From the NCBI GenBank assembly GCA_019054805.1, contig JAHQIY010000008.1, positions 1,473,501 through 1,537,500 of the forward strand: a stretch of 64,000 bases of DNA. Reading direction: 5' to 3'. Both the position numbers and the translations under genes were made by a program. Positions 7,191 through 62,795 of this stretch are shown piece by piece; the first letter of the stretch is position 1, and each line of letters opens with the position of its first letter. Source of the DNA: Brachionus manjavacas. Its lineage: Eukaryota > Rotifera > Eurotatoria > Ploima > Brachionidae. The notes beneath the pieces were generated by a model that searched no databases, had not been told where the DNA came from, and saw nothing but the letters and a program-made list of their open reading frames with translations.

Positions 7191-7216
7191 TAAATGATGA
7201 TAATTAATAATGAAAT

Positions 7217-8380
7217 AATTTTTTTCCTTATTCACTCCTTGTGAAGCATAGGGTCATTACTTTTGATTTCCACTCAAGTCAATCTTTTGCCTTTACCCTT
7301 GCTTCTCCCCATGTCATTTCCATTTCGATGGGCTCTTTAGTGATTGATGACCCTAATAGTTGTCAGACTACTGTACACACTTTGGAGCTCTCAGATTGTC
7401 CTTTTTCCGAATCACGCTACACTCTAATTTCTCATAGAAGAGTTTTATCAAGTTAACTTTCTTCTGTGGCAGGCCATAAGATCTTAATATGGCCCACAAG
7501 GTTTCAAAATGTGTATGCTATCAAAGATTTTCTTTAAGTCAATGAAGTTAAGATACAGGTAGGCTATTTCATTTCAGATTTTTTTCTATGATGTTCCTAA
7601 ATGTAAATATCTGATCTATGCATCCTCTACCTTGTCAAAATCCTGTTTGTTCTTCTCTAAGTATAACATCCAAAGAGTTCCTGATTCTTTGAAGAATTAT
7701 GCTGCAGAACGCCTTGCTTGCTAGCAGTGTTATTCCTCGAAAAGAAAAGAAAGAGATAGACATCCGATGAGACATGGACACATGATAGCTGAAAGAGGGG
7801 AAATCAAAACGAAAATGCTTCAAGCAAAATCGGGTCGCATTCGCGAGAAATTAGAAACATTATATGAAAAAAAGAACAGGCTTTGAAGAAAGGAGCAAGG
7901 CTGATAAAAGAAACTTTATAAACCGGTGTGCTAGTGAAGCGGAAGAAGCCAGCTCAAAAGGGGACCTTCATTTGCTACACAAGATCCCAAATGCGATATG
8001 TGGATCCTCACAAAAAGAACAACATTAGTGAGAGACAAACAAGGTCGTATTTTAACAAATGTTTGAGCATTTAAAGAAGTTCTAAATAGACCAGAACCTA
8101 AAGATTCTTTACAACCTGAACCAGCTGGCACTGATCTCGGTATTGACACAGAAGTTCCTAGCCATAAAGAAATAGAATCTGCGATAAATGCTCTGAAGAA
8201 CAGAAAAGTCTCAGGTATTGACGGAGTCATGATAGAAATGTTGAAAGCTGACGGTAGAATAGGAATATTGCAAGACCTCTTCAGCAAGTTATGGCGGCAA
8301 GAAATCATATCAGAGGAAAGGCCTAATAGTTAAGCTCCCCAAGAAAGGTGACAAAATGATCTGTGACAATTGGCGAGGAA
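7217..8380. mobile_element. RTE-type LINE with inverted 5' segment (twin-primed)
   Basis: 7217-7740 reads on the minus strand as the reverse transcriptase from RGITLLASKAFCSIILQRIR onward (REEQTGF, then a palm segment near INFIDFKK), followed by an internal deletion and the RTE C-terminus (MTWGEARVKAKD, LEWKSKVMTLC). 7745-8380 reads on the plus strand as the part just upstream: the connector (GRIREKLETLYEKK, ASEAEEASSKGDL, VRDKQGRILTN) and the RT start, ending KLPKKGDKMICDNWRGI. The two halves face away from each other and meet at the WRGI motif of the family. TAATAATGAAAT at 7205-7216 and 8381-8392 is a 12-bp target duplication. Several stops make it dead. Confidence 0.8.
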
Positions 8381-13985: not shown

Positions 13986-14753
13986 TTAATAATATTGAAA
14001 ATTATAAACATTTTGATAATTATTGTAATATTGATAATTATTTGGTGTTTTGAAATGGGAAGAATAATCAGAGCTCGTGGGAGAAGAATTTTGTACATAG
14101 TAATTAAAAGCTGAAGTGTAATCGGAAGAAAAATTAGATGTTGTTGAAGAATAATGAGGATAATAGTTTTGATTTATTACTGGTGAAGAGGAATAAATAG
14201 GGCTATTTGAATGAAGCGAAATATTTGGACTATTTTGACTAGTGGGTGAACAATAAGCTGAATAATTAAACCGATAGCTTGTCGGAGAGCTAGACTGAGT
14301 AGAGTAATTATTTTCTGAAAAGGTAGAATCCAAAGAAAGAGTTGAATAAGAATAAGCAGTTAATGGCTGAATTTCTTCTTCCAATTTGATGCGATTTTGG
14401 ATTTGATTCTCTTCATTTTCTGATTTTCTTTTTGTACATCGGGTATCCCTAGTTTTGCGAAATTGGTTTTGTGTACGTCTTCTCACATTTACGAACCATT
14501 GTTTTACCTGATTAATTGTGATGTTACCTTTTTGTGCAAACATTTCACAGTCTCTATAGGTCGGATAAGGATTAGAATAATGACGGTCGTACCATTCTGT
14601 CATTAAGTCAACTGCTTGGGTTGGCAATAGTCGACTGTTTTCTTTTACTCTTTGTCTTACTTGTGGTAGCTTTTTGGCTCTATCCGAAATTGGAATAGAT
14701 GCAAAAACAGTGTTGCTAAACAAGTATTCTTCGGGTGATTTTTGGTATTCCAT
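13986..14753 (-). CDS. divergent TALE-class homeodomain protein
   Basis: A DNA-binding transcription factor of 255 residues in one exon. The homeodomain lies at about residues 34-100. It carries the TALE-type helix 1-helix 2 loop with NPYP and a third helix QVKQWFVNVRRRTQ, keeping the invariant W, F, N and R (WFxNxR). The spacing between helix 1 and the WF motif implies the three-residue TALE insertion. The segment before it is basic. The C-terminal half (from about 125) is low complexity, rich in Ser, Tyr, Asn and Pro, likely an activation or disordered region. No MEIS, PBX, Iroquois or SIX companion domain is visible, so the subfamily is undecided. Orphan lineage-specific TALE genes exist in several invertebrates. 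The ATG at 14753 is the first in frame and follows a TATA-like promoter. Confidence 0.8.
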   Translation of the reverse strand: MEYQKSPEEYLFSNTVFASIPISDRAKKLPQVRQRVKENSRLLPTQAVDLMTEWYDRHYSNPYPTYRDCEMFAQKGNITINQVKQWFVNVRRRTQNQFRKTRDTRCTKRKSENEENQIQNRIKLEEEIQPLTAYSYSTLSLDSTFSENNYSTQSSSPTSYRFNYSAYCSPTSQNSPNISLHSNSPIYSSSPVINQNYYPHYSSTTSNFSSDYTSAFNYYVQNSSPTSSDYSSHFKTPNNYQYYNNYQNVYNFQYY

Positions 14754-14814
14754 TTGGTAATTTTTTTGTTGATGAAAAGATGAAGTGATGATGCTTATCG
14801 GGCATTTCCGATGG

Positions 14815-14824
14815 TTAATTTATA
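14815..14824 (-). promoter_or_regulatory. TATA box of the homeobox gene
   Basis: On the minus strand GAGCGC is followed by TATAAATTAA, about 60 bp upstream of the ATG at 14753. This leaves room for a start site near 14790 and a short leader. Confidence 0.45.
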
Positions 14825-14829
14825 GCGCT

Positions 14830-17155
14830 CAAAATAAAGGACTTATCCAAATGCTGCAGATAAGTTGATTAAATTAAAAAAAATAAGTTCGATTAATGTG
14901 AGTGTTAATCATTAATTAAACTACTCATCATCAGTAACCGGCGATTATCAATTAGGAAGAGAAATTTCTGACTGTTACTCAATTAATTAAGTCAGATAGT
15001 GGATGGCAATAGATTTTGATTATGTGTTTCCCTGAAGGTTATCTATTTGAATATTTAAAAATTAAAATTTTGTCTCCAGGGTATTAGTGTAATAAATCTG
15101 GAATAATGGAATTTTTTATCAAAACTTGTAAATTTTTTTTAGTTTTCTATTTAAAATTTATTTAATTTTAATTTTATATTAATCAAGGAACCTACCTCGA
15201 TGTAGTCAAACAAACAAAATTTAAATATTTCATAATTATTATTTCTATTTTACTCTGTATGTTTCCTTTTTTCCAATATTTAATAATTATCATTATAAAA
15301 TTAAATTTTAGCTTTAAAAAAGAAATCGTTAGATTCAATTTAAAATTTGTGCGATTTCTTTCTATTTTTTAAAAAATGTCGCAAATTCAAGTGGATTTTA
15401 TTGAAATAAAAAAGAAAAAATATTTTAAAATCAACTTTCTATTATCTATAAATTTTAATAAATATACTATAATTATTTAAAATGAAGATGATGCTCGATA
15501 CAAATCAATAAAGTTTTTTAATTTTTAAATCTTTTCGTTAATGCGTTAGGTAAAATATTTTTTTTCGTGAAAATATTAATATTGCTTAAATATAAATAAT
15601 TTTATTTTTTAAATTTGTTTTATTAATGTTAGACACTCCAAAATAAATAGATTAAAATCAAATAAATTTTTCAAGTCTTTAAAAATTTTTTTTGTTAAAG
15701 AAAAAATATAAATTTTTATTTTTACTTCTTATTTTATTTCTTTTAAATACGCAAAGTAAAGTAATTCGAAACTAATTTTAAAAAATGTTTCAATTATTTA
15801 TTTAATTTAGATTAATTGAAAAAATAAATCGTGCCTACTTTTTGAGACGATCAATAATTACCAATTGGTTAATCCAGAAAAGCTTCAACAAAATTTTTAC
15901 ACATTTTTTGTTAAGGAATTTTTTTGCTAACAAAAATTTAAAGATATTTATTTTATTTAGTTTTTTCAAACCTTTTAGTTTCAAAAAGGGTTCAAAAATC
16001 AAATTTATTTAAAAAAATTTTTTTCGGTCTTAAGCAAATTCGGAATCTACTTTAGTTTCAATTTTAATTACACTAAAAAAAATTATAAAACTTAAATGAA
16101 AGCTAATTGTGAGTGATTAAAATTCTTCAAAGAATTTTCATTGAAATTAGGTTTTGTTTTTAGGGATTTAAAATGATAGTGTTTCAAAACTTAGGGATTT
16201 GTCAAACTCAACAAATCTTTAGAGATACACATTTGAAAAAAAATTGATCAATAATTTTTTTGTTTTTTTCATAATTTTTTAAGAATTAATTCACTTGAGT
16301 TGATAAACTAAAGTTATTCGATTATGAAACATTTTCATTTTATTGGACATGTCTTTGCCAAGATGTTCAAAAATGTCAAAAAATCAACTAGAGACACGAA
16401 ATTACCATTCCTTCGAATTTAAATTAATACTCTCAAGGATTATGACAAAATTTCATGACAAAAAAGCAGGCTATTTAAATTCTAATTTTCTAAAATTTTG
16501 TCTTTTTTTTTTGGTTTGAAAAATATATTTTTAGAATATATCTTCTATCAAAAAAAAATCAAATTAGAAACCGACCAAACTTGTCCAAAGATAGATTTTT
16601 CTAATTAATTAGTTTTAGGACTAATAAATCATTTTTAATTTTCAAAATGCGTTGGACCAAAAAGGATAATTTTAATAAAATTAAAATGATAAAATTTTTA
16701 TAGTTCTTTTTCCTAAGAAAATCTAAAAAAAAAATTGTTAATTTGTTAAAATTTTCTTTAACTCAAGGTATCCTTTTATTAAATGTACTTTAACTCGAGT
16801 TAATTTAGATCGGAAGTAAATATTAATCAAACAAAAAGCTTTTTTTAAATAATTTTTAAAGACTTGTTGCTTTCCCGATAGGCGTCAATAAAAATTATTA
16901 AATTTACTTGATTTAAGCTTTGTTTAATTAGTCATAATTGAGCAGGTATTTAAGCATATTTTTTGTCGACTTAGACTAAAATAGTTTTTAGTTAGCAGCA
17001 ATTTAATTTCATCTAAGAAATTATAATCAAAATTTAACCAAAAACACTACAAAATTTTTTTTAAACTATTGTGACATTTTCAAAACGGAATAAAATTATA
17101 AAAATTTTTTTTTAATTTTAAAACAATTTTATAGTTTATTTAGATTTCTGTTAAA
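14830..17155. other. AT-rich intergenic region
   Basis: Between the divergent homeobox gene and neuropeptide gene. A/T runs dominate and no ORF is visible. GCAGGTATTTAAGC near 16943 could hold a TATA-like element for the neuropeptide gene. Confidence 0.35.
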
Positions 17156-17646
17156 ATGAAAAACTTAAATTTTTTCCTAGTGGTTTTGTGTGCAATTATA
17201 TTTCAAGCTTCATCAGTAAATTTTTTTTTCAATTTAAATTTGAGCTTAATTTAAAAAAAATAAAGGAAAAAGTTGACGACGTAATACTGAAGACAGAAAA
17301 AGAGCCAGAATCTAGTGATTTATTTCGAGATTTGGAAAAGCGCTACCGTCTCTATGGCAAGCGAAATTATGAAACAGAGCTCTCGGATGAGATTGGACAT
17401 GACGCGTCAAATGATGTAGACAAGCGCTACCGACTGTATGGCAAAAGAATGGACGATCTCTCTGATTTGGACAAGAGATACAGATTGTACGGCAAAAGGT
17501 ACAGACTCTACGGAAAGAGATACCGTCTATATGGAAAGCGAGACTTCGATGAATCAAATGAGTCAGATGATTATGAGAGAGAAATTTTAAAAAGATATCG
17601 TCTTGCTGGAGGTGGCACTGGTAAACGCTTTCATCTCATGGGATAA
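17156..17646 (+). CDS. amidated neuropeptide precursor (YRLYamide type)
   Basis: A secreted prohormone of 146 residues. Exon 1 (17156-17215) encodes a signal peptide, MKNLNFFLVVLCAIIFQASS. After a 50-nt intron, exon 2 (17266-17646) encodes the rest. Five copies of YRLYG, each bounded by KR dibasic sites, predict five identical tetrapeptides with C-terminal amidation (YRLY-NH2). Three copies are back to back and two are separated by acidic spacers. A variant (YRLAGGGTG-KR) and a terminal FHLMG, whose Gly is the last residue, predict two more amidated peptides. Precursor architecture is typical of animal neuropeptides. The RLY-amide ending recalls sNPF/RYamide-type peptides, but I do not recognise the family. 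Processing is inferred. Confidence 0.9.
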
Positions 17647-45079: not shown

Positions 45080-45242
45080 AAAACTAAAGTTAAAATCAAT
45101 CTTGACCCTAAAATTAAAGGTAACAATTTTGGTAATGAGAAAAAAGTCTAATTTTTAGGCACCAGATTAGACTCAAAATTTACATCTAGTCTAATGGTAA
45201 ATGAATTAAAAGAGCACTGTAATTTAAGGCTAGAGCACAGGG
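45080..45242 (+). mobile_element. diverged LINE fragment
   Basis: Encodes, with stops, KINLDPKIKGNNFGNEKKV and FLGTRLDSKFTSSLMVNELK, clearly homologous to the FLGIKFDSKLNFNVLVDEIK block of the abundant LINE but of another subfamily. It directly abuts the LINE copy starting at about 45243. Confidence 0.55.
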
Positions 45243-46555
45243 GCAAACTGGATTTAGGAAACACCGGCGAACATCAGATAATCTTTTCTTTTTAATTCAA
45301 AAAATTGTGGAATCATTTAATAGAAAAAAAAGAGTTTGCAGCCTTTTTTTTTGATATTTCTAAAGCCTTTGATAGGGTTTGGCATGAGGGTCTACTTTTT
45401 AAACTGATTAAAATGAATCCCACTCATTAATTGACTAACTGGGTTAGATCCTTTTTAGATAGTAGGACATTTAAGGTAAATGTGAATGATCATCTGAGCA
45501 AAGAATATAAAATAACAGCAGGTGTTCCTCAAAGCTCAGTAATTAGTCCTCTTTCATTTAGTATACATATTAATGACATCCCCAAAAGAACCAAAACAAA
45601 TAATGAATACTCTCTGCTTTTCGCAGATGATCTAGTTACATTCTCCATTTTTAACAAATAAGGGAAACTTGAAAATAAGATAAATAAATACACCAACGAA
45701 CAAGAACAATGGCTTATTAAATGGAAAATGAAGATATCAGTTGATAAGTCGTGTTCAGTAGTCTTTTCTAGGTACAAAAAAGAGGGTGATAATCTAAACT
45801 TAAAAATCTATGGAAACAGAATAGTGAGCCAAAAAGAAATCAAGTTTCTTGGTATTAAATTTGATTCTAAGTTAAACTTTAATGTACTGGTAGACGAAAT
45901 CAAAGAATGCTGCAATAAAAGGTTAAATATTATTAAGATATTGTCAAACAAAAAATGGGGTCTCAATCAAAACACACTAGGAAATTTATATAAATCTTTA
46001 GTCGGATCGATTTTAGACTATTCTTTTCCTTGCTTGAATTCATTTTCGGAAAATAATATCAAAAAACTACAAGCAATTAAGAATACAGCAGTCAGATCTA
46101 TCCTTAAGTTAAAATATGATACTCCCTCCAACATCGTGCAACATGAAGCTTTTAATAAACTAAAATTACTAACAGTCTCGAATCGTCTTTTTGAGTTGAG
46201 CGAGAAATATGTTGGGACAGGACTGAGTCTTTCTATTCCATTGGTTGAAAGACTGGTGAAAGAATACAAAGAAGGTTTCGAATCAAGATATATTGAATAC
46301 CCAACTCCATTGTGTAATTGCTCCCTTACTATTTCTTCTTTTTATCCTGAAATTTGAACTATTTAAACATGTGCCACATGAAACAATATTTTCCAATTTA
46401 TGTCTTTTCAACTTTAATTTTTTTTAGCTTATTTACTCTATTTTTGATTCCTTTTTTTTTTTATCTAATTTTATTAACTTTAATTTTATTTTTATTTTAT
46501 TTTTAACTTATTCTGAAGGAGCTCTAGCTCGGTACAGAAAACAAATAAATAATAT
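45243..46555 (+). mobile_element. 5'-truncated LINE, plus strand
   Basis: From NTGEHQIIFSF through FDISKAFDRVWHEG, palm (45431-45661, LLFADDL) and connector plus C-terminus (45728-46357, ending SRYIEYPTPLCNCSLT then SSFYPEI). A stop at 45659 and one upstream interrupt the frame. The 3' end is CTGAAGGAGCTCTAGCTCGG, then an AAAT tail near 46550. It lies tail-to-tail with the next LINE. Confidence 0.85.
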
Positions 46556-46670
46556 AAAGGCTTTATTAAATTTTTTTTAAAGAAAGGTTACGAGCAGGTA
46601 ATTTTATTATTGCAAGGAACGAGCATCGCGACGAGCTAATAACCAGATGTGTACATAGGAAAATCTAGGA

Positions 46671-46734: not shown

Positions 46735-48584
46735 ACTTTTCTATGAAATTATTTTATTTACTTATTTATTTATTTGTTTTCTGCACCGAGCTAGAGCTCC
46801 TTCAGAATAAGTTAAGAATAAAATAAAAATAAAATTAAAGTTAATAAAATTAGATAAAAAAAAAAAGGAATCAAAAATAGAGTAAATAAGCTAAAAAAAA
46901 TTAAAGTTGAAAAGACATAAATTGGAAAATATTGTTTCATGTGGCACATGTTTAAAAAGTTCAAATTTCAGGATAAAAAGAAGAAATAGTAAGGGAGCAA
47001 TTACACAATGGAGTTGGGTATTCAATATATCTTGATTCGAAACCTTCTTTGTATTCTTTCACCAGTCTTTCAACCAATGGAATAGAAAGACTCAGTCCTG
47101 TCCCAACATATTTCTCACTCAACTCATTAAGACGATTCGAAACTGTTAGTAATTTTAGTTTATTAAAAGCTTCATGTTGCACGATGTTGGAGGGAGTATT
47201 ATATTTTAACTTAAGGATAGATCTTACTGCTGTATTCTTAATTGCTTGTAGTTTTTTGATATTATTTTCCGAAAATAAATTCAAGCAAGGAAAAGAATAG
47301 TCTAAGATTGATCCGACTTAGGATTTATATAAATTTCATAGTGTGTTTTGATTGAGACCCCATTTTTTGTTTGACAATATCTTAATAATATTTAGCCTTT
47401 TGTTGCAGCGTTCTTTAATTTCGTCAACTAGTATATTAAAATTTAACTTAGAATCAAATTTAATACCAAGAAACTTGATTTCTTTTGGCTCACTATTCTG
47501 TTTCCATAGATTTTTAAGTTTAGATTATCACCCTCTTTTTTGTACCTAGAAAAGACTACTGAACACGACTTTTCAACTGATATCTTCATTTTCCATTTAA
47601 TAAGCCATTGTTCTTGTTCGTTGGTGTATTTATTAATCTTATTTTCTAGGTTCCCTTTCTTGTTAAAAATGGAGAATGTAACTAGATCATCTGCGAAAAG
47701 CAGAGAGTATTCATTATTTGTTTTGGTTCTTTTGGGGATGTCATTAATATATATACTAAATAAAAGAGGACTAATTACTGAGCTTTGAGGAACACCTGCT
47801 GTTATTTTATATTCTTTGCTCAGATGATCATTCACATTTACCTTAAATGTCCTACTATCTAAAAAGGATCTAACCCAGTTAGTCAATTAATGAGTGGGAT
47901 TCATTTTAATCAGTTTAAAAAGTAGACCCTCATGCCAAACCCTATCAAAGGCTTTAGAAATATCAAAAAAAAAGGCTGCAAACTCTTTTTTTTCTATTAA
48001 ATGATTCCACAATTTTTTGAATTAAAAAGAAAAGATTATCTGATGTTCGCCGGTGTTTCCTAAATCCAGATTGCTCCTAGATAAGGAGTGAATTTTGTTC
48101 CAAATAATTGTATAATATTGTAAATACTTTGCGTTCCAGGAGCTTTCCTTAACAACTCGTTATACTAATTGGTCTATAATTTAAAGGATCTTGTAAAGAA
48201 GAGGCTTTTTTTGAATCATAGTAATGTTCGATGTTTTCCATGCTTTAGGGACTCTACCTTCTCGAAGAGATAAATTAAAAAGTTCTATAATTTCTATTAA
48301 TGAATTTCTAGATAAGTTTTTTAACATTAGATTATGAATTTGGTCAGGTCCTGATGCCGCTTCATTTTTCAATCTTTTTAGAGCCATAATTAATTTATTT
48401 AAGCAAATTGGATCATTAAAATTAGACTGATCATAATTTCTAAAGAATTCAGAGTTAGAATTAAGTATTTCGAAATCTTTATCACGATCTATTAAATCAG
48501 AATTAGGACTAAATATTGAAATAGGAGTTCTCCAAAGCATTTTCCCATTTCTTCATTAGTTTTGAATTCCTTGTCATTTAAAAA

Positions 48585-54844: not shown

Positions 54845-55317
54845 AAAAAGATCAGAGTTGTTAACCATTGGAATGCCCTGCCAGCCGAAGTTACCGACTC
54901 TCAATCAATCAACCATTTCAAGAATAATAACGACGCCTTCAAGTCTAGCATATGATTTCACTATAGCGCACTAGTTCCTTCCACCTTTTTTTATTGTATA
55001 CTTCTTCTATTTTAATTTTTCACTGTAATTCTATTTAAATTGTAATTTTATTTGATTTGTAATGGTATTTAAACTGTAATCTTTTATTATGTAATTCTAT
55101 TTCTGTATTCTTGCATATTTTTCCTTTGAAAAATTCTTGTACATAATACTTACTTAATTCCACACAATACTTTCTTAGATTAAATAAAACAATGACTCTT
55201 ATTGAACTAAAAAAAAAAAAAATGTATTTGTCTGTTATTTTCCATCTTTTCTGCGTAATTTCGGCTACCATAAATGTCCTCCTAGTAGGTCATCTCCGCA
55301 AGCTTGCTTGCTGTAGC

Positions 55318-55512: not shown

Positions 55513-57985
55513 GAAACCATCAAGTTCATTTATTACAAAAATCAAGATTATTGTGAACTAGCTGAACCTCTTTATATTTAAGCTCATATCTATAAAATGA
55601 GCTAAAATATTTATTATCATAGTTTAAGTAATAATTTTATGAGTTAGAGTCATCTTTTGTTCTTTTAAAAAATTAATATTTTTTGAGAAAAAATCAATGT
55701 TTATTTTACCAAACAGATGATTTTTTTAAAAATCGACACATAAAATAAGCAATTTGACTTAACTATTTATATTTTGAAAGTTAAAAAGTTAAAAAAAATA
55801 GTTAATACAAAAGACTTGATTTCAAAAAAATTTTCTTTTTAAAATCAAAATTTAGGTATTGGTTCAATCTAAATAGTGTCAATTTTAGCTAAACAATTTA
55901 TACTTATTCGGCACGACATAAAAAAAAATTAATGATCTTGAGGCCCATTTTATTTTGAATTTTTTTAGATAGTGTTTAAAGGTGAATATTGATCTTTGAT
56001 TTTTAGATTTTATTAAATTAAATTATATTTTCTCGGTAAAAGTTATGATAGTTGAAAATAACATCAGCAATAGAATAAAATATTAGGAAAATTTCCTCCA
56101 AAATATTAAAAACAAAATTTTATAGTTGCTTATCTTATTTATTAAATTTTAGTGATGATCAAAATGATCAAAAATTGTTTTTGATATAATTTTTTTAATA
56201 AACTTGAAAATTAGTGCTTCTCATTATAAAAAAATTTATTATTAATAATTTTTTCAAACTGTCATATTTTTTATATAAGGACTGAATAGTTTTAAGTGAT
56301 TCACAAAATTTAGAAAATAAAATTAAAAATTAATCATTCAAATTTTTGTGTTTCTATTTTGTTATAAAAATCAATTGAATTGTCTTCAAGAAATTACTTC
56401 TAAATAAAAAAATTTTTTTTTGGCATGAAATTTTTTATCTGAATGTTATATAATTAAACTCTCATATTTTTTCCGACTTTATTTTCAACCTGTTTTATCA
56501 CAGAAAGTAAAATTTTTGATTTTCAAAATTAATAAAATATGAATTTATTTTTCTTTTCTTACCGATTTATTTTAATTTATTAAGCTAATAAAAATACTAA
56601 AAATGAATTAATAATATATTTTTTCAGAACTAGATTTTAACAAGATTTAAATGCCATCTTTATTGTTTATTAAGTAGACAAGTTATTTTTTAAAAGCCTT
56701 TACGACAAAGCTTTTTAAATTAGGAATTTACATTTAACAATAAATATGCAAATAAAAAGAAACAAATTTATATAAAAATTCTAAGCAAATATTAACTCAA
56801 TTTTTGTCGTATTGATTATTTTCCAAATCAGAAGCTTTTTATTTTCTTGCTTTTTTTATTTTTATTTTTATTTCTAATATATTTTTATTTTTGAAGGGCT
56901 CTCTTTGATCATTTCTAATTCTAATACTGAATGATAAAATAAAAAAAAATCTAATTTCAGTTCACAATTTCTTTCAATAGACCCAATTTTGGCTACAAAC
57001 CATTTCTTACTTTCGATCTTGGTTATACATTTCGAAGATGCTAGTTTTAGATGAATATTGGTATATTTCGTTTTTTAGAATTAAACAAATTAATGAATAA
57101 TAATAAGTTAATTATTTAAAATTTTTTTTGGCTAAACTTTTTCTCTTTTCAATTAAATTTATTAAATTTATTTTTGTTTTTTATTATTTAAATCGCCATT
57201 TATTTATTATGAAAAAAATATTTGCGAAATAAAAAAGGAAGATCATGTGTCTTCCATTAACCGAAAACAGAACTGCGAAAATTTTAAATCATAAATCTTA
57301 ATTTTTATTTTATTATTATTCATATACGAACTTCTGTAAAAAAGTTTTCTAGCAAGTCTTTTATTATGCCCTCTTCTGATACTAATAAAATTAAAAACAT
57401 AATTACATTTGAATCAAATCACCTAACTTAATCAAACTATTGATTTAGAATTTTTCTCTTACTAATAATATTTTTTAATTTTTTTTTACTTCATGTGTTG
57501 CACTAAAACTTTGCAGCGGATATCAGCATGGTATTATGGTAAAAAAGTTTTTTTTCTTACTGCATTGGAGATTGTTGTTTGCCTCTTAACTAATTTAAAA
57601 TATTTTAATATTGGTCTTGGCTAGTCAACTATGTTTCTAGAATTTTTAAGGAATTTTTCAATATTTTTGTAAAGGGATTTGGATCAATTTTCTATTAATT
57701 ATCTTCAGAAAAATCTTTAAAGAATTTTTTCACCAAAATATTTTTGCCCGGGCAAAACCAACATTATTATACTTAAATTGGTTAAAGGCAAACAGAAATA
57801 TAGAAGAATTTTCAAAGATTTTTAAGGTTTTTGAACATTTTCTCCAAATAATCTTCAGATTATTTTGAAATATTTTTTACTTTATTCTCTTTTTTTTCTT
57901 TATCTCTTTCAATATTTAATATTAAATAAGGATCTGGTGTAAAATAATCAGAATGATAATGTTTATTTTAAAAAAATTTTTTTTT
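55513..57985. other. AT-rich gene desert
   Basis: Nearly 2.5 kb of A/T runs with no ORF, splice chain or repeat that I can support. A short AAGTAAGTAAGTA tract lies just before it, near 55432. Confidence 0.4.
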
Positions 57986-57989
57986 TCCT

Positions 57990-58170
57990 TTTTCATTTTT
58001 TGTGGAGCACAGGGTCATTACTTTTTATTTCCACACAAGTCGATATTTCGCCTTTACCCTTACTTCTCCCAGTGCCATTCCCATTTTGGTGAGCTCTTTC
58101 ATGATTGTTGACTTGTTGACTACTGCTGGTCGTTTTATCTTGCGTCGGCCAAATTTAAGAAAAGTTTTCT
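57990..58170 (-). mobile_element. RTE 3' end fragment
   Basis: The minus strand reads RRRKIKRPAVVNKSTIMKEL, then MGMALGEVRVKAKYRLVWK and KVMTLCSTKN: the C-terminus of the RTE element seen at 7217 and 36538, diverged, with a stop. It abuts the first of the 593-bp repeats. Confidence 0.65.
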
Positions 58171-58763
58171 ATATTCAAAAGTAAGTTACACTTCATTTTC
58201 GAATGAATCACATTTTTTAAAGAATCCTCCGACTTTAGCAGTTGATTAGTTCGACAAAATGACTGCATATTCCAGATGTGATCATGTGAGCTTAAATCAA
58301 GGACTAAAATTTATTCTATGGGGTTTGAGGTTTTTATCTAGATATTTTAATTAAAAAGTTAAAATATAAGATAAATAGTATCGAATAAAAATTTATACAA
58401 TGATTAAAAAATTGATGTAATTCAATCTAGCTAATTTTTTTTGTAAGTTTTATGTTATTAAATAAATGTTTACAATAATGTTTGGCTAATGAAAGTATTA
58501 AATTAGCGTATTTTATTTTTTTCAAGAGTAAAATTCATGGAAAATTGAAGTTTATGATCAAATTTCGATTATAAAATTTGAATTTTATTGCAGAAGTATG
58601 TTTTTTAAGTAAAAATGTGTTTCTGTATTTAATTTTTAGAAATATTCGAAAATATCTTTTTTAAGGTGAATTTTTAGCATGATTATGAAAGTATGACCAA
58701 AAATATTTGTAAAACAAAACAAATAATTATGCATTTTGCTTTTAGATTAAGAGCAAAAATCAA
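58171..58763. repeat. 593-bp direct repeat, left copy
   Basis: Identical, as far as I can read base by base, to 59541-60133. AT-rich, non-coding, starts ATATTCAAAAGTAAG and ends GAGCAAAAATCAA. Flanks the LINE at 58764-59540. Confidence 0.92.
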
Positions 58764-59540
58764 GGACAAAAGATAAAGTACGACAAAAGATCACGTACGA
58801 CCAATCTACTGTATGCACTAAATATTGAACCAGTTATCTCGAAAATAAAAAAATTAAAACTGAATTTTGCATCCAGAATAATTGGTAATGAGTGTACTGG
58901 AAAAATATTTAGAACGAAAGAAACTGATCGAAATAACGGTAATAAACTTGTACAAGAGTTAAGAGAGATTCTTGGCTCGAATGAGTTCATTACTCAAGAA
59001 ATTTTAACTAAAAAAGTAAATAAAATCAAGGAAGAAGACGAGATAAAAAGTAAAAATGGAATATGTGAAACTATAAAATTTTGCCTGGAAAATATGGACG
59101 AAAGGAAAGAGCAATTAAAATTAATAGTTAAAGCTTACTCATGTAAAACTGGTCCTTAAGTGATAGAATCAAACAAAACTCAATAAAATTCGATGCGTTC
59201 TTGGTTCTTGTTTTATACGTGACTGAAAAATAATAACAAAGGGATAAACAAAATTTAAAAAGAAAAAAAAAAAAAAAGGAAAAAAAAAAAACTTACATAC
59301 GACTTTTCAAAAGGTTTTATCTTTTTTTTTTTTTTTTTTTTGTATCTCAATATTTGAATATTTAATCTAAAATTAATCTTTTGTGGTATTTATGTAATAA
59401 TTTATTTTAATATTTTAATTTCTTAAACATAATTGTAAATTAAAAATAGGAAAACTAACAGTACAAAAATCCTTGTATTTAATTTATTTTTAACATCGCC
59501 AAGTCTGGCGTAATTTTATGAATAAATAATAATAATAATA
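58764..59540 (+). mobile_element. 5'-truncated LINE between long repeats
   Basis: The plus strand is open from the first base: LLYALNIEPVISKIKKLKLN, FASRIIGNECTGKIFRTKE, then a helical tail to a stop at about 59158. This is the C-terminus of a CR1/L2-like RT ORF. The 3' UTR contains long A and T tracts (59260-59341) and ends CGCCAAGTCTGGCG, AATAAATAATAATAAT. It is not the abundant LINE. Confidence 0.75.
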
Positions 59541-60133
59541 ATATTCAAAAGTAAGTTACACTTCATTTTCGAATGAATCACATTTTTTAAAGAATCCTCC
59601 GACTTTAGCAGTTGATTAGTTCGACAAAATGACTGCATATTCCAGATGTGATCATGTGAGCTTAAATCAAGGACTAAAATTTATTCTATGGGGTTTGAGG
59701 TTTTTATCTAGATATTTTAATTAAAAAGTTAAAATATAAGATAAATAGTATCGAATAAAAATTTATACAATGATTAAAAAATTGATGTAATTCAATCTAG
59801 CTAATTTTTTTTGTAAGTTTTATGTTATTAAATAAATGTTTACAATAATGTTTGGCTAATGAAAGTATTAAATTAGCGTATTTTATTTTTTTCAAGAGTA
59901 AAATTCATGGAAAATTGAAGTTTATGATCAAATTTCGATTATAAAATTTGAATTTTATTGCAGAAGTATGTTTTTTAAGTAAAAATGTGTTTCTGTATTT
60001 AATTTTTAGAAATATTCGAAAATATCTTTTTTAAGGTGAATTTTTAGCATGATTATGAAAGTATGACCAAAAATATTTGTAAAACAAAACAAATAATTAT
60101 GCATTTTGCTTTTAGATTAAGAGCAAAAATCAA
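59541..60133. repeat. 593-bp direct repeat, right copy
   Basis: Second copy of 58171-58763, at an offset of exactly 1370 bp. It follows the AAT tail of the LINE directly. Confidence 0.92.
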
Positions 60134-60840
60134 CATTACCAAATTAAGAATAATTTTGAAAATTAATTTTTGTATCCAAAGTTAAACTAATTTCAACAGA
60201 AAACTCACCTATCAAAATGCGCTTTGGTATACATTTATATTTAAATTGCTTATTCAATGATATCAAACTCCATCTAATTGTCTAACAGTGTTGCCAGCAG
60301 CTACATTATCTTTGTTTACCTTCTTTAGATAAACACTGCTCAAATATTCTAATACACTGATAAAATTGTTTAAATTTGAATAAATTACAAAAAGAAATTT
60401 ACAAAAATTTGAAGATGTATCTAAATTTAGACGAAAAAAATTTTAATCTCAATCTAAAGTAAACATGTTAAGGCATAGATAAAAATCAAATTTTAATTAA
60501 CGAATTTTTCTGTAATAAAAAAGCCATTTATTTTTCGACTTTTTATTTTTATTATAATAAGATGCAACTTAAATTTACTTTAATTTTTTTTATTTAAATT
60601 GGCATTAAATTGAAAATTATGGCTAGAATTTGTCACGAGGCAAACAAAGCTAATTAGCTTCGAGGAACGTGCAAGGCCAAACTTTCACTCAAAGCATTTG
60701 AAGATAAATCAAAATTTAATAAAAATGGTAATAAAATTTATAATGCTGTGTCATCAAAATTTATTTTTCCAAATATTAGCTATACGATACTTTGAATGTC
60801 AACGAAACGTCTAGAATTAATCACAACATCACATATAAAT
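60134..60840. other. intergenic, downstream of TTI2-like gene
   Basis: AT-rich. A less biased patch at 60275-60310 (CTAACAGTGTTGCCAGCAGC) may be promoter-like. No ORF. Confidence 0.35.
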
Positions 60841-60841
60841 A

Positions 60842-61804
60842 TCAGATAATACTTTCTAAAAGATTTTTGAAATTAGCATCTAATTTGTGATCATTTTTCA
60901 AATTTTTCAACTCTTCCACATCAAATTTTGATGTTTTGTCATTTTTTAGAAGTTTTTCCACAATTCGACACACTTTGTCTATCACATTTAATTTCTCTCC
61001 AACTCTTTCCTTCATTTCAGTTGTATCTAAACCATAAAAATACAAAATTTTTATACAATGGCTCAGGACTGGTCTTGCATGGCAGTGGATTCGTTCGGAA
61101 CAAGTGTCAACAATAGCCATGATCAAATCAATGCTGGACTCGATGAATTCCGACTGTTTATCAAAGTCCAGACCAATCTTGGAGCTTTCAAGTGAATCAA
61201 AGGCAATTGTCAAGCATTTTTCCAAATGACGGCTCGCGAATACACCCATTTGGTTGACGAACAAAATTAAATTTGTGTAATAAACTGTTTTGGCACTAAT
61301 GCTCGTGGTCATGTAGCAATTGGTGAGCATTGAGCCCATTGTTTGAGAGTGCTTGCGGTAGTAGTGCTCTCCTGAAGCATACTCCGGTTCCATGATAGCC
61401 AAGAGCTTTAGCATTGATTTTCCAATCGAGTGCAAAAACTCGACACACTCTTTGTCGTTCAAGTACTTGCCAAAGGTCTCGTAAAGCAATTGGGCTCTCA
61501 TGTTGAAGAGAAGTTTGGCCTGGGTCAAATTATCCAGCAGGTGATTTAGAATGCGGAGAGCGTGGATTTTTTTCTGATAATCCAGCTCTTCTAGATAAAA
61601 TATGCCGTATCTGAGCGTGACTTCAAGCAGGGCTTCGTCGTCAAAGCCCGGAAAGTTGACCTTAAAAATGTGTTCCTCAAACTTTTGCTCCATGTCGGTG
61701 CATTCTTGAGCAAAAAAATTTCTAGCCTTGCCAAAACCCTCAATTAGTTTGACTCTTTTTTGCTTGGTTGAAGTCAAGTTTAAAAAGTTGCCAGATAATG
61801 TCAT
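60842..61804 (-). CDS. TTI2: TTI2-like protein (TTT complex)
   Basis: TTI2 works with TELO2 and TTI1 as an HSP90 co-chaperone that stabilises PIKK kinases (mTOR, ATM, ATR, DNA-PK). 320 residues in one exon, alpha-helical throughout, without signal or membrane segments. It aligns by eye with the C-terminal half of human TTI2: LRILNHLLDN then FNMRAQLLYETFGKYL (human YNRAQVLYHALSNHL), YYTNLILFVNQMGVFASRHL (human YARNLPAFVKRLGILTVRHL), and TCSERIHCHARPVLSHCIKI (human TWPRVSCRLVVLLKALLKL). Human TTI2 is about 508 residues, so the N-terminal third is absent or too diverged. The ATG at 61804 is the first in frame and no exon was found upstream. GC content is higher than in the flanks. The identification is from remembered sequence; a generic ARM-repeat protein is the alternative. 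Confidence 0.6.
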   Translation of the reverse strand: MTLSGNFLNLTSTKQKRVKLIEGFGKARNFFAQECTDMEQKFEEHIFKVNFPGFDDEALLEVTLRYGIFYLEELDYQKKIHALRILNHLLDNLTQAKLLFNMRAQLLYETFGKYLNDKECVEFLHSIGKSMLKLLAIMEPEYASGEHYYRKHSQTMGSMLTNCYMTTSISAKTVYYTNLILFVNQMGVFASRHLEKCLTIAFDSLESSKIGLDFDKQSEFIESSIDLIMAIVDTCSERIHCHARPVLSHCIKILYFYGLDTTEMKERVGEKLNVIDKVCRIVEKLLKNDKTSKFDVEELKNLKNDHKLDANFKNLLESII

Positions 61805-62795
61805 TTTAATTATTAGCTATTGAATGGATGCTTGGTCTTGATTAAGTGGGAGAACAATAAAAAAAAAGCAAGTCCTAAACGCACTAGGATACAAAGTTAA
61901 AATATTTTAAAATAAAAATTAGAATAATTAAATTCAACGCAATTACATTAAGAGTAAAATAATAGCTTTTTTTCCTCGGGTATAAATACAGGCTCTCACA
62001 AATAAATTTTTCTTTTCTTTTTTATTTTTTAAATTTCAAATTTTTGCACACTTTAAACTAAATCTTATCTAGATAGAACCATGCTTTAGAATATATTATG
62101 ATCGTTCTAGATCAGCTGAAATTTTAGTAAGCGCAATTTCACGGAAAAGGTTGTTCTATTAAAATAAATTATGATTCAAGTAAAACAAAATTCGATCACT
62201 TTTCCTTAGGAACCGATTTATTTATTCGGCGCAGAAAATTTAAAAAAAATTAGTTACATAATTTAACCATAGTACAATCACGCAATTTCCAAAAAAAACA
62301 TTGATGAAAATTGAGAAACAAAAAAGGACTTAAAAACTTATTTTCAATAAATTTTTAAAAAGTTTAAAAATTAATAACTCTGATCAAGGTATCAAATGAA
62401 TTAATAATTAATAAATTATTACCCAGTCTAGACGTAAATCGAAGCACTTAAAAAATTTAGAAATTTTAAATGATAAAATTTTATTTTCATAATTTAAAGC
62501 CTCTAACATTTAATTACTATAATGTTAGATTCAAAAAAATCAAACAAAAAAGCTCACTCCTGGACTAATAATCAAGTTATATCTTTGTTTATTTGAATCA
62601 CCTTTTTCATTGCTTGCATGATTGATCATTGTAAATTATTTTTTAATTTTTCAATTAAATTAAAAATTAATTTAGATTTAATGAGAGAAATAAAAACCAA
62701 AAAATGGAAAAAATAAATCACCAAGAAATAAATGATTACACGGCATCACAAGAGTAGAATGAAATTTAAGTAAAAAAAAAATTTATTTAATTTTA
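61805..62795. other. intergenic between divergent genes
   Basis: TTI2-like (minus) and the second deaminase (plus) diverge from here. CTCGGGTATAAATACAGGCT near 61975 is a good TATA box on the plus strand. A short ATG-led stretch at 62704 (MEKINHQEINDYTASQE) could be a leader exon. No other gene is seen. Confidence 0.35.
61981..61988 (+). promoter_or_regulatory. TATA box, probably of the second deaminase
   Basis: TATAAATA preceded by CTCGGG in an otherwise very AT-rich region. The nearest plus-strand gene is the deaminase paralogue about 0.85 kb downstream, so an intervening 5' exon and intron would be needed. Confidence 0.35.

What the first reader, a model, noticed from the sequence alone, without database searches (positions are those of the whole stretch)
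58171..60133. Truncated LINE flanked by identical 593-bp direct repeats
58171-58763 and 59541-60133 read identically, and exactly between them sits a 777-bp 5'-truncated LINE whose AAT tail abuts the second copy. If both arose in the insertion, this is a target site duplication of about 593 bp, far beyond the usual 5-20 bp, implying widely staggered nicks. Perfect identity means the event is very recent or the assembly duplicated a haplotype.
Basis: partly seen in the sequence, partly recalled or inferred. Interest (0 to 1): 0.75.

Follow-up and report, generated by a model that had tools for sequence, protein, structure and literature searches.

The report
Rotifer LINE insertion with 593-bp duplication
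A very young, truncated jumping gene in a Brachionus-like rotifer sits exactly between two identical 593-base copies of the DNA it landed in, most likely because the second cut or join used to insert it lay about 600 bases from the first instead of the usual 10 to 20; this is rare but has known parallels, and sequencing reads are still needed to exclude an assembly error.

Summary
Between them lie a 17-bp filler and 760 bp of a LINE 3' end with its TAA tail. The host is a Brachionus-like rotifer. Six other copies are 98-99% identical, and the window copy has no private substitution in its LINE part, so perfect flank identity needs only a young event. The 5' junction carries a retrotransposition-like scar: the filler recopies the first 17 LINE bases (14/17) from a 4-nt GTCG microhomology. 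A sister copy, checked against its empty site, has a similar 8-bp filler with at most 5 bp duplicated. Where detectable, end repeats of other copies are 9-18 bp; no flush long one was found. Best reading: target-primed reverse transcription completed at a strand end 593 bp from the first nick, on the same duplex or the sister. Human L1 does this, mostly in repair-deficient cells; rotifer R9 makes 126-bp duplications. A one-off of a known kind; without reads an assembly error is not excluded.

The parts
58171..58763 (+). left copy of the 593-bp duplicated target
   Evidence: identical to 59541-60133; only these two full copies found in the genome
58170..58171 (.). inferred first (bottom-strand) nick, TTTTCT|ATATTC, where the LINE tail was primed
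   Evidence: the tail abuts the right copy at the equivalent position 59540/59541; resembles the C54 sister site CTCTGT|ATAAC; position inferred
58764..58780 (+). 17-bp filler at the LINE 5' junction, imperfect recopy of the first 17 LINE bases
   Evidence: 14 of 17 identical to 58781-58797; a GTCG microhomology lies exactly 17 nt back; the filler+LINE junction was found once in the genome at up to 3 mismatches
58781..59540 (+). 5'-truncated LINE 3' end, 760 bp
   Evidence: 98-99% to 6 other copies; 0 private substitutions in the LINE part among 7 copies
58782..59159 (+). C-terminal part of the reverse-transcriptase ORF (125 codons and stop)
   Evidence: same residues as the end of the 547-aa ORF of L039; that ORF matches RVT_1 PF00078
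59160..59522 (+). LINE 3' untranslated region
   Evidence: shared with the sister copies
59523..59540 (+). (TAA)n tail of the LINE, abutting the right copy
   Evidence: read; same tail in sister copies
59541..60133 (+). right copy of the 593-bp duplicated target
60133..60134 (.). inferred position of the second-strand end used to complete the insertion (equivalent to 58763/58764), 593 bp from the first nick
   Evidence: right end of the identity; inferred

Best explanation
A LINE RNA was inserted by target-primed reverse transcription. Shown: the (TAA)n tail joins the left edge of the 593-bp segment, the LINE is 5'-truncated, and its 5' end carries a 17-bp filler that resembles the next 17 LINE bases. 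Inferred: the bottom strand was nicked at 58170/58171 and primed first-strand cDNA. The enzyme reached the 5' end of a broken RNA, slipped back 17 nt on GTCG, recopied to the same template end with three errors, and the cDNA end was then joined to a top-strand 3' end 593 bp downstream rather than 10-20 bp downstream. Filling in the 593-nt gap on both sides made two identical copies. The distant 3' end was either a late or misplaced second nick on the same duplex or a nick or break on the sister chromatid. Both give the same final sequence.
For: Duplication flush with both LINE ends. Unit single-copy elsewhere. LINE young, with 6 near-identical sisters and no private substitution in its LINE part, so 0 differences over 593 bp is expected. 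5' filler resembles the LINE end (14/17), with a microhomology that fits the slip distance exactly. A sister insertion on C54, with an empty site 11.4 kb away, has an 8-bp filler that resembles its LINE start (7/8, read) and at most 5 bp duplicated, so such scars occur in ordinary insertions of this family; the 8-bp match alone is weak (316 of 63,984 window positions do as well). Exact end repeats of 9-18 bp at 10 of 40 copies against 0.55 expected show staggered cutting in the family. Published L1 work shows the same outcome: in NER-deficient human cells TSDs had a median of 1,495 bp, and events above 100 bp never exceeded 10% in HeLa cells (PMC5223499, passages).
Against: One event with no replicate. 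No other copy examined has a flush long duplication: 22 other copies with 1.5-kb flanks; 20 copies with about 0.4-kb flanks, the 5' end uncertain in some; 8 loci of 9.8-9.9 kb, five best hits each. Two young sisters, L042 and L043, showed no target duplication at all. The exact empty allele is not in hand. Three mismatches in 17 is a high error rate for a recopy by the enzyme that left no private substitution in the other 760 bp. XPA_C, Rad4 and Rad10 domains are present, so a host-wide repair loss of the kind that lengthens L1 duplications is not indicated.
Confidence: 0.8

Rival explanations
1. Assembly artefact: a heterozygous LINE sits at 58170/58171 on one haplotype; the assembler wrote the empty haplotype as far as 58763 and then switched to the other haplotype inside the LINE, so the 593 bp are one locus written twice and the LINE 5' end is a false join.
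For: It gives exactly the order A-LINE-A with identical A and needs no unusual biology. Near-identical duplicated segments lie 11-15 kb apart at three places in this assembly (C54, C17, C4), some of which could be haplotype duplicates.
Against: The supposed false join is marked by a 17-bp near-copy of the LINE end with a fitting microhomology, and a similar, weaker scar is present at a sister insertion checked against an empty site; a false join would not make that. No N in the window, and no other exact local duplication of 140 bp or more in the 66 sequences scanned (299,971 bases with overlaps).
Confidence: 0.1
2. The 593-bp segment was already tandemly duplicated and a LINE inserted exactly at the junction of the two copies.
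For: Local duplications exist in this genome.
Against: It needs an insertion at one exact position with no target duplication of its own, and a tandem duplication with no divergence. A coincidence by parsimony.
Confidence: 0.04
3. A LINE inserted normally beside the segment, and a later duplication or recombination copied the 593 bp to the other side.
For: Local duplications do occur here.
Against: Both later breakpoints would have to fall exactly on the two LINE ends, and a short duplication of the original insertion would be expected at one side; none is seen.
Confidence: 0.05

Closest known systems
Human L1 insertions with long target site duplications (PMC5223499, passages)
   Same: LINE inserts flanked by duplications of hundreds to thousands of bp; the authors propose use of a more distal, unrelated second nick
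   Different: human cell culture, engineered L1, mostly NER-deficient cells; here a natural insertion in an assembled rotifer genome in which three NER domains were found
R9, 126-bp stagger (figure from passages of PMC6895275; that R9 is a rotifer rDNA-specific element of the R2 group is recalled, original paper not read)
   Same: rotifer LINE with a target duplication far above 20 bp
   Different: R9 is site-specific; here a family named jockey-like by its database relatives, at dispersed sites, with usually short, variable duplications
L1-mediated tandem duplication in tumours (PMC7058536, passages)
   Same: one LINE cDNA bridging two points so that the DNA between them is duplicated, with the LINE at the junction
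   Different: megabase scale, somatic; here 593 bp in a reference genome
Hebe, jockey-clade LINE of the bdelloid Adineta vaga (PMC2861651, passages)
   Same: rotifer non-LTR element with an RT domain
   Different: Hebe is reported only as non-5'-truncated copies, while the copies seen here are largely 5'-truncated

Membership tests
non-LTR retrotransposon (LINE), jockey-like by database name | reverse-transcriptase domain of the LINE type | tested here: met
   RVT_1 in the longer sister copies L042 and L039; the best hit that bears an organism name is a jockey-like RT of Brachionus plicatilis, 70% over 55% of the query. Clade not tested by a tree; the window copy holds only the RT C-terminus
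non-LTR retrotransposon (LINE), jockey-like by database name | AP-like endonuclease domain | tested here: inconclusive
   the close copies examined are 5'-truncated or their 5' ends were not settled; L042 gave only RVT_1; L040 reads into an endonuclease-like C-terminus (by eye); several homologues carry PF03372 or PF14529
non-LTR retrotransposon (LINE), jockey-like by database name | 5' truncation, 3' tail, dispersed copies | tested here: met
TPRT insertion with target site duplication | identical direct repeats flush with both element ends | tested here: met
   593 of 593
TPRT insertion with target site duplication | duplication length within the family's usual range | tested here: not met
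   other copies: 9-18 bp at 10 of 40 tested, at most 5 bp at C54
TPRT insertion with target site duplication | empty site with one copy of the target | not testable with these tools
   no second strain or reads held; shown only for the C54 sister
R9-like fixed long duplication | constant long duplication at every copy | tested here: not met
   no flush long repeat found in the other copies examined

The most novel reading that the evidence does not exclude
In this rotifer, LINE insertion occasionally uses a second strand end hundreds of bases away in the germ line, so that LINE insertion is a natural source of small segmental duplications, as seen so far mainly in human cells lacking nucleotide excision repair.
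Probability: 0.3. Interest if true: 0.5.

Novelty: new member of a known kind. Interest (0 to 1): 0.36.

Why it matters
How LINEs choose and prime the second strand is still open. A natural, very young insertion with a 593-bp duplication and a readable 5' scar, in a genome where sister insertions look ordinary, is a clean case that fits a distal second nick or a sister-chromatid join and is easy to check by PCR. It also shows how a LINE could duplicate a piece of unique DNA without unequal crossing-over.

Tried and rejected
Tested whether the long duplication is a habit of the family: not supported (short repeats). Twelve of 44 listed matches of another, much larger LINE family were fetched and showed no flush long repeat: L072 has 30 bp at 90% starting about 30 bp past the tail, L077 157 bp at 80% and L078 18 bp, neither flush; the 5' ends of many may lie outside the loci. 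Tested whether the host lacks nucleotide excision repair, which could lengthen duplications: domains of XPA, XPC/Rad4 and ERCC1/Rad10 are present; whether the genes are intact was not tested. A 248-bp, 96% repeat in L039 looked at first like a second long duplication; with more contig it proved to belong to a duplicated segment of at least 7.9 kb, copies 11.4 kb apart, whose other copy is the LINE's empty site. A 180-bp, 86% repeat in L044 is not flush with the LINE. I first took the copies that share only the last 200-300 bp for SINEs; at least five of them (L028, L061-L064) have reverse-transcriptase-like LINE sequence upstream at 67-70%, so they are a diverged LINE subfamily. No known RNA family in 57500-60500 at the gathering threshold. 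No target duplication was found for L042 and L043, and the 5' ends of L040/L041 and L045/L046 were not settled. Papers: the listings (titles and starts of abstracts) showed no report of hundreds-of-bp duplications for a Brachionus LINE; the library lacks most subscription journals, and no paper was read whole.

Full report
What was checked. The two copies at 58171-58763 and 59541-60133 are identical over all 593 bases and differ at once outside. The unit was found nowhere else at full length; the other six hits are 49-99 bp at 75-88%. In the 66 sequences scanned, totalling 299,971 bases with overlaps, it is the only exact direct repeat of 140 bp or more within 6 kb; the next are four of 96-133 bp, all in the window. 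The window has no N.

What lies between. The 777-bp insert matches six other places in the genome at 98-99%, but only from its 18th base (40 of 190 first-look candidates were scored, so counts are lower bounds, and two of the six lie in one duplicated segment on C17). So it is a 17-bp filler plus 760 bp of LINE: the last 125 codons of the reverse-transcriptase ORF (same residues as the end of the 547-aa ORF of L039), a 3' UTR and a (TAA)n tail. Longer sister copies carry RVT_1. The best hit that bears an organism name is a jockey-like RT of Brachionus plicatilis, 70% over 55% of the query, and the neighbouring gene at 60845-61816 is 87% identical to a TELO2-interacting 2-like protein of B. plicatilis, so the host is a Brachionus or close kin. 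The species was not determined.

Age. Aligned with six sisters, the window copy has 15 private substitutions, all in the 21 junction columns that hold the filler and the last four target bases, and none in the LINE proper; differences in homopolymer and tail length were set aside. A young insertion explains identical flanks without an assembly error. With an assumed mutation rate of 3e-9 per site and generation, zero differences bounds the age at about 0.84 million generations (the rate is an assumption).

Junctions. The filler GGACAAAAGATAAAGTA matches the next 17 bases, CGACAAAAGATCACGTA, at 14 of 17. Only 29 of 63,966 window positions show as good a period-17 match; of the 17 whose word holds all four bases, 9 lie at this junction in shifted register and 8 at 55022-55030. 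On the cDNA strand the end GTCG recurs exactly 17 nt back and nowhere else in the 80 nt examined, as expected if the enzyme slipped back and recopied to the same template end. The filler-LINE junction was found once in the genome. At C54 a sister copy lies in one of two duplicated segments (at least 7.9 kb, 99.1-99.7% identical, 11.4 kb apart) whose other copy is an empty site, CTCTGTATAAC|AAAAGGG. The filled site shows at most 5 bp duplicated (ATAAC, part of which could be tail) and an 8-bp filler TTTAATAG, 7 of 8 like the LINE start ATTAATAG; 316 of 63,984 window positions do as well, so this second scar is suggestive, not strong. Together they favour the window's 5' junction as a product of insertion, not a false join.

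How unusual. Of 50 loci of this family and a diverged LINE subfamily with the same 3' end, 10 were dropped (7 with the 5' end outside the locus or too near its edge, 3 without a clean tail) and 40 tested, the window copy included: 10 have exact end repeats of 9-18 bp against 0.55 expected from mismatched pairs (some are AT-rich, their ends ambiguous, and this test looks at short repeats only). Flush long duplications: 1 of 23 with 1.5-kb flanks, the window copy itself, the four other hits (L022, L030, L032, L035) being 22-33 bp and not flush; 0 of 20 with about 0.4-kb flanks (the 5' end is uncertain in some); 0 of 8 loci of 9.8-9.9 kb, five best hits each. The 8 loci hold sister copies already met as loci, two pairs of them segmental duplicates. 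Among the young sisters, L044 has about 10 bp, the C54 copy at most 5, L042 and L043 none found. So the family normally makes short or no detectable duplications and this copy is an outlier.

Mechanism. TPRT began, by inference, at the left edge: the tail abuts the right copy at the position equivalent to 58170/58171. The cDNA was completed at a top-strand end 593 bp downstream. Published L1 data show the same outcome: TSDs of 5 bp to 5.3 kb, median 1,495 bp, in NER-deficient human cells, and above 100 bp in at most 10% of HeLa events (PMC5223499, passages). There the authors propose that a more distal unrelated nick is used when NER is deficient. Tumour data include a 22.6-Mb tandem duplication ascribed to a LINE cDNA bridging sister chromatids (PMC7058536, passages). 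The final sequence cannot tell these two routes apart. XPA_C, Rad4 and Rad10 domains are present here, so a general repair loss is not indicated; gene integrity was not tested.

Against. One event, no reads, no empty allele. The assembly rival (heterozygous LINE, empty haplotype written first) gives the same order of parts and is kept at 0.1; the recopied filler is the main argument against it. This assembly holds near-identical duplicated segments 11-15 kb apart at three places (C54, C17, C4) whose reality I could not test.

Verdict. A real observation, most likely a genuine LINE insertion with an exceptionally long target site duplication: a natural rotifer example of something known from human cells and, at 126 bp, from R9 (figure from passages of PMC6895275; its rotifer host is recalled). 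Ordinary in kind, rare in degree.

Noticed in passing
L047, L039, L048 (G000:C54:58000-87000): A duplicated segment of at least 7.9 kb (99.1-99.7% identical, copies 11.4 kb apart) in which one copy carries the LINE and the other is its empty site, a clean before-and-after pair for this family.
   Followed up: yes
L040/L041 (C17) and L045/L046 (C4): Two more pairs of near-identical segments 12.4 and 14.8 kb apart, each copy carrying the LINE; recent tandem duplications or haplotype duplicates of the assembly.
   Followed up: partly
L026 (about 1450-1785) and relatives: A diverged LINE subfamily shares the last 200-300 bp and tail of this LINE at about 78-84%; in at least five copies (L028, L061-L064) RT-like sequence lies upstream at 67-70%. 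One search lists 11 other copies that start within the first 24 query bases and end within its last 2, at 89-97%.
   Followed up: partly
window 45239-46557 and 46762-48078: Two copies of another LINE in inverted, nearly abutting arrangement, 97% identical; its 3' end gave 2,909 first-look candidates in the genome.
   Followed up: partly
window 57952-58112: An old repeat 80% identical to 7193-7351 ends about 60 bp left of the LINE's inferred first nick.
   Followed up: no
window 17155-17646, + strand: ORF with repeated RYRLYGKR units, by eye a neuropeptide precursor.
   Followed up: no
window 13986-14819, - strand: ORF with a homeodomain-like stretch that includes VKQWFVNVRRRTQ, by eye.
   Followed up: no
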